64,000 bases of DNA from Paramecium tetraurelia (lineage: Eukaryota > Ciliophora > Oligohymenophorea > Peniculida > Parameciidae). Under the pieces are notes generated by a model that saw only the letters and a program-made list of their open reading frames with translations, had not been told where the DNA came from and did no database searches. A program made the position numbers and the translations under genes. Positions within the stretch are counted from its first letter, which is position 1. Every line of letters begins with the position of its first letter. The stretch lies in NCBI RefSeq assembly GCF_000165425.1, contig NW_001799533.1, positions 358,463 through 422,462 of the forward strand, read 5' to 3'. Positions 56,187-61,816 of this stretch are shown one piece after another.

Positions 56187-58335
56187 TCATTTAAACAATT
56201 TCTTTAATTAATGTAATTAGATTGAAGTCTTTTATTGATTACTCTCTTATTCTTCTTGATTTAAATCAATTCCATATGATTGATGTTTTTGCTATTCACT
56301 CAGATCTTATTTCAAAACATCAATAACTCGATCAGCCAAGAATGTCAAGGAAGGCAACATTTGTGACTATGGGATTAAAAATTCTTTAATGTTGAGTTCC
56401 TTTCTTAAAATAAATGACTATATTACATTTATCTAGCTTATTTAGCTAATTATAATCGTCTATAAACATTTGAATCAAGGGGTGCTGCATCTTCAATTAT
56501 TGGTTTTTCAGGTTGTTCAGCTTATTCAAAATGAGCTGTCTCTTACTCATCCATCATTAGGGAAGCCTTTCTCTCTGTGCTTAGAACTGTTAAATATTTG
56601 TATTAATTATTCTGGTTTATGTAAGAGTATAATAAAGTTCTAACATTAGATGAATATAGTAAACCTGCCATTTATAGTTGCTGAGATTAATTTCTGAGAA
56701 GCAATTCCATGCTGAATTTTAGACTATTTAATATCTACAATCAACGCCTATTCATTTTCATATTAAATAGCAATAAAATGGTCATTCAATTTACTGATTG
56801 ATTTAGCCTTACCAAATTAAGTGATTATCTATTTTTTAGTATCCTAATAGAATGTAATTGTTCCACCATTACAAACTAAAGCACCTGATTAATATATATG
56901 AGCAACCTCAGGAGTTGTTTGATCCAAAGGCAATTCTTTAATAATGTTATTATTTTTTGTATTGATATGCAATATACTAATAGAAGTAACGATGACAATG
57001 GTGGTTTCATCTTTAATATATGCTGTTAAAACGTTTCTTCCTTTGTATCCATGACCTCTGAAAACACAATTCCAATTGAATTATCCTTTTGTTTACTTAA
57101 TTTATCTCCATATTCTAATTTCTCCATTTCCCCAAGTGATTATTGAATTATGTCCTATATCCATTCCTTCAATATCATAATCGGTGGTTGTTACAAGATT
57201 AAATTCAAAATTATTAACATTTTCAAAGATTGATAGTGTTTGCTTAAGATCAGAACCCAAAACAACAATCAAAAATCTATCCAGCATGGCAAACTATAAT
57301 TTAAATAATAAAAATTACTTAATTAATTGTGGTTCTATCTCTTTTATATGAATCTTCAATATTAGACACATAATTTCTTTGTTATATAGGAATTATGTTT
57401 AATAAACTACCTTGTGTAGGATAAATAACTTATAAGGTTCCATTTGCTCCTTAGGTAATTAATTTATTCTAATAAGTGATGAAATTATTAGGGTAAACAT
57501 GATGAATTCCTTAAAAATAGGGTAACTTATTCTAGCCCATTAAAGAAATCTATTTAATTTGATTAATTCCTTTTATATTAATAATGAGATTATCATCATT
57601 ACTACACATAGCTACAATTTCTCCTCCTTATCTTGGAAAGAAGGCCTTTCTTGCAACTCTCAAATGCCATTATACAATGACACCTTCCTAACCAGCAGAA
57701 TATAGTGATGCTCCTGCAAATAGTAACGCATTAACTTAATGAGCATGCCAATGATCTTATTATACAATGATACCAGTAGAGAATTATAATAAGATCAATT
57801 AACCATTGTTTAATCCACAAGCCAAAAGATCTTAATCATCATCTAATTACATAATCGTTACTGCAAGTCCAAATTCTCTTATGATTCTGTCTTCATTAGC
57901 AATCACATGAATCTATTTATCATCAGCAATAATTAATTATTCTTTATATGCTGAATATTGAATGCAGTTAATATTCGTAAATGATTATGCATCATATATT
58001 TTAGAACAAGTGGTTCCTACTCTAACAATGTTATTTCCATCATATGCAATAAAATGATCATTATGAAAACAAGCATGCTAGAATTGCTTTCCTTTATGGT
58101 GTTTACTCTATAATTATTTCCCATCTACAGAATAGACAAGAAAATGAGAATTATGTGTCAATATAAAAATGTCTCCATTAATAGCAAATGTTTAAATGGA
58201 TGCACCTACATTGATTCTACTATTCAATTTCATTGTGTCCTTTTCTAAAATTAACAAATCTTCTCCAGAATAAGTGTAAACTAAAGAATTGCAACAAAAT
58301 AATTTATGTCCCACTTAATCACCAAAATTAATCAT
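56187..58335 (-). CDS. WDR75/UTP17 (NAN1)-like WD-repeat protein
   Basis: 691 aa after introns of 25, 25 and 23 nt. It is a run of divergent WD40 blades, for example DLLILEKDTMKLNSRINVGA, DHWHAHQVNALLFAGASLYS followed by GQEGVIVQWHLRVA, and SIITWGNGEIRIWRQIK. It then has the characteristic C-terminal helical tail containing QSQMLPSLTFLADRVIDVLK, which matches the LLPS.sxL end of WDR75/Nan1. The family is part of the t-UTP subcomplex of the small-subunit processome and acts in pre-rRNA transcription and 18S maturation in the nucleolus. Length is a little shorter than in yeast and human. Confidence 0.8.
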
Positions 58336-58445: not shown

Positions 58446-59708
58446 TCATTATTTTATCCAATCCAATAATTAAATTGCATCATACCATCTGTAATCGGTA
58501 GATTTACAATTTAATAATACAATTATATAAGAATTATTATTATCCAAATAATATTCGACAACACAAGGTCCAGCCTCCTTAGTCTAGCCAGTCTTCACTC
58601 CTTGAAATCCATTGTCTAATAATTTATTAGTATTTTCCCAAAGGATTTCTTTTATGTTACCAAATTTATCTATAATTTCACTAAAATAGATTTTTGTTTT
58701 AACAATGTTAGCAAAGTGTTCATTTTACAATGCTTGAAAACATAGGATTCCAATATCAAGAGCTGAAGAGTAATTAAATTTATGGTATAAACCTAATGAA
58801 TGTTGAAGTAATAATACCATGAGGATTCATATATTATGTTGATTTGAGACCAAATTCTTTTGCACAACTATTCATTTCATCTATAAAATTGATTCCTGTA
58901 GTTTATTCGAAATTGTGTTTTAAAGTGACGGCTGCGTCATTGCCTGAAGGGAGCATGAGTCCATAAAGTAGATCTCTTAGATTCAATTAGTCCCCTGTTT
59001 ATAGTTATGCTGAAGTACCACCAACATTTTCAGCCTATGTATAAGTAGTTTAATACTGCTTCAGGGACTGTGAAATAAGTGTTATCTAGATCTAGTGATA
59101 TTAATGAGACGAATTTGAGAGATAAAAAACATGTCATAATTTTAGTGATGGATGCTATTTAACATTTAAATTTTTCATTGAAACCAGCCAAAAGTGATCC
59201 ATCCTTCCCATTTATAATACACCAACTCTATGCTGTTATTGGTGGACCAAAAGGAATTGAAGGAGATAATGGAATATGTCTAGGCAATATTCTTGGGTTT
59301 CTCTTAAAGGCAGTTTAAGGTTGTTGAGGTTTTTTCTATTTTTGATGATTGATAATAGGATCATAAGTGTAACTGAGCTATTAAATACAGGTGTTTGCCC
59401 TAGAATTTTTCTAAGTGAAAATGTGGAATTATTTGGTGTCAATTGACATAGTATTGGATTGAGCAAAATTAGTTGGATCATAATGTTAAGATGAAGAGAC
59501 TTGGGACATCTTACGTAGCTAAACCTTTTCTATGAGTGATTTATATCCATTATGTACTTTTGATGGAGTCCGAGATAGATTTATTGGTTAAGTCTAATTA
59601 ATAGGTTTGTTTTTTAGCAGTAAAAGGCTGTATTTATAGTCTATAATCTGGAGGGTGATGATTGAGACGAAGAATGTACTATCTAGGAGTGGTTGCATCA
59701 ATTTTCAT
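58446..59708 (-). CDS. S11-family D-Ala-D-Ala carboxypeptidase-like protein
   Basis: 395 aa after introns of 28, 22 and 25 nt. It has the three active-site motifs of the penicillin-binding serine transferase fold in the right order and spacing: SxxK in IASITKIMTCFLSLKF, SxN in YGLMLPSGNDAAVTL, and KTG in GFQGVKTGQTKEAGPC. Around them, GPPITAQSWCIINGKDGSLL and ENVGGTSAQLQTGDQLNLRD match S11 peptidases (DacA/DacC type). In bacteria these trim the peptide stem of peptidoglycan; ciliates have none, so the substrate is unknown. No signal peptide is seen; the N-terminal roughly 160 residues are a Gln/Pro/Thr-rich extension. Introns show it is a nuclear gene. Confidence 0.92.
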
Positions 59709-59722
59709 TTAATATATAATAA
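59709..59722. promoter_or_regulatory. 14-bp space between divergent start codons
   Basis: The S11 gene starts at 59708 going left and the next gene starts at 59723 going right. Only TTAATATATAATAA separates the two ATGs. Any promoter must be this AT-rich core or lie inside the coding ends. Confidence 0.6.
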
Positions 59723-61816
59723 ATGCTAAAATTCGAGGCATTCAAGAAATAACAGAGACTCATTGAGAGATCACCTTAGTTTATTGTACAATAGTTACTG
59801 CAGAGGAAGATTGTGTTTATTCGCGAAAACTTCAGTTCCAAGGAGAATTTCATGATTCAAGTAAATATTAATGACTAACAACCTTAGAAATAAGAATCAT
59901 AAGAGATTATATATCTTAAGCCAGAATGTGGTGATCAGGTGATGAATGAGTTGACCAGAATAGCAATGTCTGAAATTCCAGAGAACGAATAATTAGAGTA
60001 CCATATAAGGGCATAGCAATTATTAGATTACTTCACATAGAATCAGTATGCTAGCATACAATATTTTATAGGATTCAAGTCCAATACACAACAGTTTTAT
60101 TTCATAAGATCAATTATGCATTGGCTTTGAGAAAGTATGGATTGACTGAGGAAGTCATCAATTTATTACTGGATAGCGATTAGATTCTCAAAATCAAAGG
60201 GAAACAATTGAAAAAGCAACCTCTTGATATCCAATTATTAGCTAGAATTGTATAAAACAAACTAATGAGATTGCGTATCATCTTTTAATGCACTTTATTA
60301 TTTTCAGAAAGCAGAAGGTAATACTATCTAGGATATAATAATAGAAACAAACAGGCATTGGAATTGGCAAAAAATGCATTAAAACAATTGAAGGCTATTT
60401 ATGAAGCTACCATCAAATTATGTTAGTAGATGAATCTAACCAATTTAATAAATAAGAAATAAAGAGCCAATTCAGAAATGAGTCTAGCCACCATGACATC
60501 TTAGCAACCCTAAAAATTATCCTATAGTTAGATTGTCGAAATGGTATTTAAGGAAATATTGGCACTCATCAAGTGTTCAATGCCACAATCCTAATTCGAA
60601 GATAAGAGTACTCAAATCATTAGAAGTTATCAAAGTAGAAGTCAATCCTTAGATAAGTACAGCGAATAAATCTCCTTTGGCAACACTAGCAACTAAAATA
60701 ATAAGTTGTATCCAAACATTAATGATAATCATCCTATGTTACAGATGCAGATCCTAGGTTTGATTTAAATGACACAAGTAGACATAGAAGAATTGTATCC
60801 TATTAGCAATCCTGAAATGGTAGTTACAGAAGAAGTCGTACTAGAATTGATTATGTTGGCTGGATTAAGTTTTTATAGTATATCCACTGAATTGAGATTC
60901 ATTAACTCTAATTTTGATAATCGATCCAATCTTGAAATATGGCTATGCAAGAGTCTCGAAATCTATTACACTTATGTTCCTCATATGTCATAGATTTTTA
61001 ATTAAATTTACCAGGTTTACAAGAAACTCTATGGTGTAGACAAACAAATGATACCTGAAGATTAAGAAATCACCCACCTAACAAAGTTATTGCGACCACA
61101 CCAATTTAATAACAAAGCTACATTAGCTAATAAAGTAGTTATAGTAATTAAAGTGCCTGAAGGTCCAGGATCTGCAAATAAACATGCTAATACTTAACAG
61201 AAAACAATACCATCTAATAAAACAAGCAAAAAGTACAATAGATTGAATATATTATAATAGACACCTTTTAACCTAAGTTGAAGATCAAGAAGATACAGGA
61301 AGATCTCCTAGTCGCATATTTTTAAAACCAACAAAATCATAATAGCCATTGGAAATCAAACAAAGGGTTGATTTTTTAATGAATCACATATTAACTCAAT
61401 AAGCTAAGTTAAGTAAGGAGAAGATGAAAATTATAAAGAGCCGTCTTAAACCTGATCTGAGTAATGGCAATGTTGGTATGACTGCCTCTACAAATACCAC
61501 TAATAATACTACATAGAATACAACACAAAATTCAGCAAAATCACCACCAAAACAATTGAGCCGTTCTCTCTCGAATTCTCGTAAGGCTAGTCAGTGTATA
61601 GTACCTGCTTAATTAAATATTCAGCAAGCATTGCAATAAACAAGAACAGCATAATTAAAGTACAGATATCGAAATCAATTTAACACTTTGCCAATTGAAG
61701 AGAGTCCCACATAATTTAGTAGCTAAAGAAAACAAGGAACTCTGGATTCTGCAAAAAAATAATACCAAAATAAATATTAATTAGTACTTTAATAGAAGCT
61801 ACAGAACCTCAATTGA
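59723..61816 (+). CDS. Large helical (TPR-like) protein, unknown
   Basis: 679 aa after introns of 26 nt and 28 nt; an extra 33-nt segment near 60269-60301 may also be spliced in frame. The first 250 residues resemble helical repeats (QYTTVLFHKINYALALRKYG, RNKQALELAKNALKQLKAIY), compatible with TPR-type solenoids. The middle is helical, ending in VYKKLYGVDKQMI, and the last 170 residues are Ser/Gln/Thr-rich, basic and disordered. Starts MLKFEAFKKQQRLIERSPQF. No family is recognised. Confidence 0.78.

What the first reader, a model, noticed from the sequence alone, without database searches (positions are those of the whole stretch)
58446..59708. A penicillin-binding-protein-fold (S11) gene in a ciliate nucleus
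All three motifs of bacterial D-Ala-D-Ala carboxypeptidases (SITK, SGN, KTG) are intact, but Paramecium has no peptidoglycan. The gene has three ciliate-type introns and ciliate codon use, so it is nuclear and long established. It may be an old transfer from bacteria reused to process bacterial cell walls of prey or symbionts, or for an unrelated amide or ester substrate. The long Gln/Pro-rich N-terminal extension and missing signal peptide are odd for either job.
Basis: partly seen in the sequence, partly recalled or inferred. Interest (0 to 1): 0.75.

Follow-up and report, generated by a model that had tools for sequence, protein, structure and literature searches.

The report
Ciliate cytosolic penicillin-binding-protein-like enzyme family
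Paramecium carries about twenty genes for an enzyme that bacteria use to trim their cell walls; its catalytic site is intact but the export signal is gone, so ciliates, which have no such wall, seem to have taken it over for a job inside the cell that is still unknown.

Summary
Our four-exon splice of window 59708..58446 gives the annotated P. tetraurelia protein P0001 (395 aa) letter for letter. It has a full Peptidase_S11 domain (151.7 bits) with SITK, SGN, KTG and the counterparts of PBP5 Arg248 and His151. It is not a lone gene: the genome has S11 matches at 20 loci, and 18 of 20 gene models keep all three motifs. Domain dN/dS is 0.03-0.09 in 10 of 10 pairs. Homologues occur in six other named ciliate genera; ciliate rows (17 named, 10 unnamed) form one clade (99/99). 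The best bacterial hits are Planctomycetota, but the donor is unresolved. Signal-like N-termini: 2 of 165 in the clade, 24 of 30 outside. Eight other cell-wall-enzyme families gave no match in the genome; a ninth, PF07478, gave two, one of them a biotin carboxylase. Best reading: one old bacterial acquisition, retargeted to the cytosol, trimming peptide C-termini. Activity, location and substrate are untested; a tubulin glycine-chain trimmer is the boldest reading.

The parts
58446..59708 (-). S11 gene, ATG to TGA, code 6, 395 aa, equal to the annotated P. tetraurelia protein P0001
   Evidence: exact translation of the four-exon splice; P0001
59558..59708 (-). exon 1, low-confidence N-terminal extension; the start MKID..TPRQYILRLN is nearly kept in P. 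sonneborni P0003, while the P. primaurelia record P0002 starts later
59530..59557 (-). intron 1, 28 nt, GTA..TAG
59057..59529 (-). exon 2, rest of the extension and the start of the S11 domain with SITK at 59152-59141
59035..59056 (-). intron 2, 22 nt, GTA..TAG; same position and phase in my models of paralogues C114, C162, C108 and C149 (the annotated C108 protein P0010 is spliced otherwise near this place)
58818..59034 (-). exon 3 with SGN at 58947-58939
58793..58817 (-). intron 3, 25 nt, GTA..TAG; same position and phase in my models of C114, C162, C108 and C44
58446..58792 (-). exon 4 with KTG at 58595-58587 and Arg382 at 58490-58488; the protein ends with the S11 domain
58449..59254 (-). 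span coding the Peptidase_S11 domain, residues 143-395 (two introns inside)

Best explanation
The gene encodes a catalytically competent serine peptidase of family S11 (the low-molecular-mass penicillin-binding-protein fold). It belongs to a ciliate family that descends from one bacterial acquisition before the last common ancestor of the sampled ciliates, lost its export signal, gained a probably disordered N-terminal extension and multiplied (20 loci here). Proposed mechanism: Thr348 and Arg382 hold the free C-terminal carboxylate of a peptide; Ser177, activated by Lys180, attacks the last peptide bond and releases the C-terminal residue; water, placed by the Ser238/Asn240 and His280 side, or another amine, clears the acyl-enzyme. 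It works inside the cell on an endogenous or imported peptide end that is D-configured or achiral (D-Ala or Gly), not on an intact bacterial wall; the different N-terminal extensions would steer paralogues to different places. Shown: gene model, motifs, predicted fold, purifying selection, one ciliate clade, lack of a signal-like N-terminus. Inferred: activity, cytosolic location, direction of transfer, substrate, role of the extension. The roles of single residues other than Arg248 rest on recall of the family.
Against: No activity, expression or location data. The motif counts are biased: the searches started from intact queries, and the gene models were chosen partly by profile score. Two of four annotated P. 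tetraurelia proteins compared (P0010 for C108, P0014 for C169) are spliced otherwise than my models, though both keep the motifs. The signal test is a hydropathy rule, not a trained predictor; one Ichthyophthirius protein (P0214) scores as strongly hydrophobic near its N-terminus (3.63). The six-frame family searches do not splice and can miss intron-rich or divergent genes. PF07478 did match twice; one is a biotin carboxylase by Pfam, the other was not identified. The AU test does not reject placing ciliates with Bacillota (p 0.132) or Chloroflexota (p 0.161), so the donor is open.
Confidence: 0.55

Rival explanations
1. Cytosolic salvage of bacterial stem peptides: food-vacuole digestion releases muropeptides, transporters import them, and S11 removes the terminal D-Ala that ordinary peptidases cannot.
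For: Family chemistry, intact active site with the carboxylate-binding Arg; most ciliates eat bacteria (recalled).
Against: No match in the genome to S66 LD-carboxypeptidase, Amidase_2, NlpC/P60, GH25, phage-type lysozyme, VanY or the alanine racemase C-domain; other lysozyme families were not searched. S11 records are kept in the parasite Ichthyophthirius. Twenty loci with different extensions look excessive for salvage (inference).
Confidence: 0.22
2. Secreted or phagosomal enzyme digesting prey cell walls, reaching its place by an unusual route.
For: Ancestral function of the family (recalled); two clade members, P0214 and P0064, score signal-like.
Against: Signal-like N-terminus in 2 of 165 clade members. 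In P0001 and the 20 P. tetraurelia models the highest 11-residue hydropathy in the first 45 residues is 1.61, below both controls.
Confidence: 0.1
3. Non-catalytic reuse: the fold serves as a binding or scaffold protein, as has been proposed for LACTB (recalled).
For: C207 has lost the motifs (CLTK, GGN, no KTG), so the fold can be kept without them.
Against: 18 of 20 models keep the three motifs and Arg382; domain dN/dS 0.03-0.09.
Confidence: 0.08
4. Bacterial contamination or a very recent transfer.
For: A bacterial-type domain in a eukaryote.
Against: TAA/TAG read as Gln, 22-28 nt introns, positions shared with paralogues, 20 loci on 20 contigs, close relatives in several Paramecium species.
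Confidence: 0.01

Closest known systems
Streptomyces K15 DD-transpeptidase (S11; PDB 1skf)
   Different: Bacterial and exported (recalled); a Cys (C98, from PDB mutant titles) where the window protein has the Asn of SGN
E. coli PBP5 / DacA (S11)
   Same: Motifs, His151 and Arg248 counterparts; Lys213-Arg248 and Lys347-Arg382 are both 35 residues apart
   Different: DacA has a signal peptide, a second domain and a C-terminal tail; the window protein ends with the S11 domain and has a long low-confidence N-terminal extension
Planctomycetota S11 proteins, e.g. Gemmata sp. G18 P0109
   Same: Closest bacterial type by search: 29 of the first 30 rows are assigned to Planctomycetota; P0109 is 39% identical and also ends soon after the S11 domain
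   Different: P0109 has a hydrophobic N-terminus (2.66) and a bacterial host
Other ciliate S11 genes (Tetrahymena thermophila P0127, Stentor P0020, Blepharisma P0018)
   Same: Same clade; hydropathy of the first 45 residues below 1.8 (0.99, 1.61, 0.47)
   Different: Different extensions; named only by the sources' own annotation
Tubulin CCP deglutamylases (comparison of role only)
   Same: Carboxypeptidases that remove side chains from tubulin (PMC12340829 and PMC11244163, passages)
   Different: Metallopeptidases (recalled); no sequence kinship tested

Membership tests
Peptidase family S11 (PF00768) | Sequence match over the curated cut-off | tested here: met
   151.7 bits, cut-off 27.6, 8-238 of 239 positions
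Peptidase family S11 (PF00768) | SxxK, SxN and KTG motifs in order | tested here: met
   SITK 177, SGN 238, KTG 347
Peptidase family S11 (PF00768) | Penicillin-binding-protein fold | tested here: met
Peptidase family S11 (PF00768) | DD-carboxypeptidase or transpeptidase activity, penicillin binding | not testable with these tools
   no assay
Exported low-molecular-mass PBP working on a bacterial wall | Signal peptide | tested here: not met
   hydropathy maximum -0.11 in the first 45 residues of P0001; controls 1.88 and 2.37
PBP5 type with a second domain | PBP5_C domain (PF07943, name recalled) and C-terminal membrane anchor | tested here: not met
   PF07943 not among the four families at E 1 or less; the S11 match ends at residue 377 of 395 and the model's domain runs to the last residue
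Serine beta-lactamase-like S12 / LACTB (PF00144) | PF00144 match | tested here: not met
   not among the four families at E 1 or less; separate S12 matches exist elsewhere in the genome
Tubulin glycine-chain peptidase (no family defined) | Removal of glycine side chains from tubulin | not testable with these tools
   no assay; two papers call the enzyme unidentified

The most novel reading that the evidence does not exclude
Ciliates turned a bacterial wall-trimming carboxypeptidase into the missing cytosolic enzyme that shortens polyglycine side chains on tubulin. The active site still has what holds a free C-terminal carboxylate, glycine is achiral and so may pass for D-Ala, Paramecium tubulin bears up to 18-19 glycines, and the 20 loci with different extensions would serve different microtubule sets.
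Probability: 0.06. Interest if true: 0.95.

Novelty: new variant of a known kind. Interest (0 to 1): 0.62.

Why it matters
A peptidoglycan enzyme kept intact, without an export signal, and multiplied in a phylum with no peptidoglycan points to an unknown peptide chemistry inside ciliate cells: a D-residue or glycine C-terminus that needs trimming. Fluorescent penicillin and feeding RNAi make it directly testable in Paramecium. If the substrate is tubulin, it would answer an open question of the tubulin code.

Tried and rejected
Rejected: contamination (code, introns, 20 loci). Rejected as shown: a definite planctomycete donor. It is the best-tree neighbour, but the AU test leaves Bacillota and Chloroflexota open, and the fourth test, with the Verrucomicrobiota cluster, did not finish. 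Rejected: PF07478 (D-Ala-D-Ala ligase C-terminus) as evidence of wall synthesis. It had two matches; the gene model at one (L124) is a biotin carboxylase by Pfam; the model made at the other (L123) was not searched, so that one is unidentified.

Weak or empty leads: the viral collection gave two S11 loci that sit together on a long branch among other bacteria. Seven paper searches listed no paper whose title or abstract start is about ciliate S11 proteins; they cover open-licence PMC only, one search listed 20 of 55 papers, and the listed papers of these seven searches were not opened. My first gene finder ran the window gene into its neighbour and misjudged several paralogues; the refined models were chosen partly by profile score, so they lean towards a complete domain. 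Of four annotated P. tetraurelia proteins compared, C12 is identical to my model, the window model equals P0001 from its residue 58 on, and C108 and C169 differ in splicing.

Rows dropped: the first tree used 32 of 45 Planctomycetota loci and left out 10 other bacterial loci. The second dropped Ptet C44, C36, C154 and C181, P0087, the two viral loci, ten Planctomycetota and two other bacteria, and added DacA and PbpG, which have long branches; L045 and L111 (a Pseudoxanthomonas MAG) were counted with the PVC group after the first tree had been seen. Its bootstrap had not settled. C207 was left out before the count, where four P. tetraurelia genes stand twice (own model and database protein); that FastTree clade has support 0.62 only. 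In one search dS exceeds 1 in four pairs, so those ratios are rough, and one pair includes C11.

Full report
What was claimed. A gene at 58446-59708 with all three S11 motifs, three ciliate introns, a Gln/Pro-rich extension and no signal peptide, in a Paramecium nucleus.

Check of the gene. On the minus strand the gene runs from ATG 59708 to TGA 58446 in code 6. Introns 59056-59035 and 58817-58793 (GTA..TAG, 22 and 25 nt) join the S11 frame. For intron 1 three solutions were open; the annotated P. tetraurelia protein P0001 uses 59557-59530, and the four exons translate to it exactly. A start like MKID..TPRQYILRLN is also seen in P. sonneborni P0003, while the P. primaurelia record begins later, so the exact start is likely but not certain. 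Of the extension, only Pro is clearly above the window's coding average; Gln is not.

A family, not a single gene. The window's assembly (69 Mb, 231 contigs) has 43 matches to PF00768 at 20 loci on 20 contigs, a lower bound. Gene models were built by a small splice-aware search and chosen partly by profile score. Of four annotated P. tetraurelia proteins in the database results, C12 is identical to the model, the window model equals P0001 from residue 58 on, and C108 and C169 are spliced otherwise; all four keep the motifs. 18 of 20 models keep SxxK, SGN, KTG and Arg382; C207 is degenerate, and C11 reads its SxxK segment out of frame in the model. Intron positions 209.0 and 281.1 of the window gene are both found in my models of C114, C162 and C108, the first also in C149 and the second in C44; the C108, C149 and C44 cases depend on my splicing. 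dN/dS of the domain is 0.03-0.09 in 10 of 10 pairs, four of them with dS above 1; dN of the extension exceeds that of the domain in 9 of 10.

Distribution and origin. Named eukaryotic hits in the listed rows are Paramecium (tetraurelia, primaurelia, sonneborni, pentaurelia, octaurelia), Ichthyophthirius, Tetrahymena, Blepharisma, Stentor, Halteria and Moneuplotes; Stentor and Paramecium belong to the two subphyla Postciliodesmatophora and Intramacronucleata. Many further hits are unnamed, some from MMETSP and EukProt. In the careful tree of 75 rows the 27 rows that I labelled ciliate (17 named, 10 unnamed) are one clade (99/99), PVC-type bacteria another (90/96), and the two join at 88/67. The AU test does not reject ciliates with the Planctomycetota core (p 0.166), Bacillota (0.132) or Chloroflexota (0.161). 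One old acquisition is well supported among the rows sampled; the donor is not resolved.

Where it works. In P0001 and the 20 P. tetraurelia models the highest 11-residue hydropathy in the first 45 residues is 1.61, against 1.88 and 2.37 in DacA and PbpG; two other ciliate-type proteins reach 1.84 and 1.86 there (P0122, whose record begins inside the domain, and the unnamed P0064). In a 335-tip tree the clade of named ciliates has 222 members (203 database proteins, 19 own models; four genes stand twice) and no bacterial locus. Of 165 with Met start and a complete domain start, 2 have an 11-mer of 1.8 or more before the domain within 35 residues; outside the clade 24 of 30 do, 9 of these 30 being near-copies. 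The clade's support is only 0.62, and most members are unnamed.

What is missing around it. The genome has no match to the PBP transpeptidase, GH25, S66 LD-carboxypeptidase, Amidase_2, NlpC/P60, alanine racemase C, phage-type lysozyme or VanY families, each of which rings in 3 to 10 of 14 control genomes. PF07478 gave two matches; one is a biotin carboxylase, the other is unidentified. S12 beta-lactamase-like matches exist at three loci. These searches do not splice, but the same method found the intron-bearing S11 genes. Other lysozyme families were not searched.

Reading. An intact, selected, multiplied enzyme of a wall-making family, without a wall, without the companions tested and without an export signal, is best explained by reuse inside the cell. 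The kept carboxylate site suggests true C-terminal trimming. Because S11 enzymes act on D-Ala ends (recalled), the substrate should end in a D-residue or in glycine. Paramecium tubulin carries up to 19 and 18 glycines on alpha- and beta-tubulin, and the enzyme that removes glycine chains is called unidentified in two papers (PMC11244163; PMC12340829; passages seen). That link is a proposal without direct evidence, and S11 activity on a Gly-Gly bond was not looked up. Salvage of imported bacterial stem peptides is the main rival.

Verdict. Observation confirmed and enlarged; origin by bacterial transfer supported, donor open; prey-wall digestion not supported; substrate unknown but testable.

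Noticed in passing
window 59708-59723: The S11 ATG (59708) and the ATG of the predicted gene on the + strand (59723-61816, 679 aa model, no Pfam match) lie 14 bases apart head to head; either a shared promoter or a later true start of one gene.
   Followed up: partly
L033 (G000:C207:104800-105333): An S11 paralogue, intronless in my model, has lost the motifs (CLTK, GGN, no KTG, Glu for Arg382) yet keeps an open frame; possibly a pseudo-enzyme.
   Followed up: partly
L040 (G000:C11:283401-283798 and upstream): In the chosen model the SxxK segment is read out of frame, unlike its close paralogue C64; either a damaged gene or a model error.
   Followed up: no
G000 C228:81803-82405, C91:53014-53475, C210:345332-346106: S12 beta-lactamase-like (PF00144) matches in the same genome, a second serine penicillin-recognising family (the C91 model confirmed by Pfam).
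   Followed up: partly
window 56187-58335: The downstream minus-strand gene (692 aa model) has WD40-type matches (WDR75, Utp21 and CDC20 propellers), all below the Pfam cut-offs.
   Followed up: no
P0214 (Ichthyophthirius IMG5_197030): A named ciliate S11 protein with a strongly hydrophobic N-terminus (3.63); it may be membrane-bound or exported.
   Followed up: no
L121, L122 (viral contigs): Two contigs of the viral collection encode an S11 domain on a very long branch.
   Followed up: no
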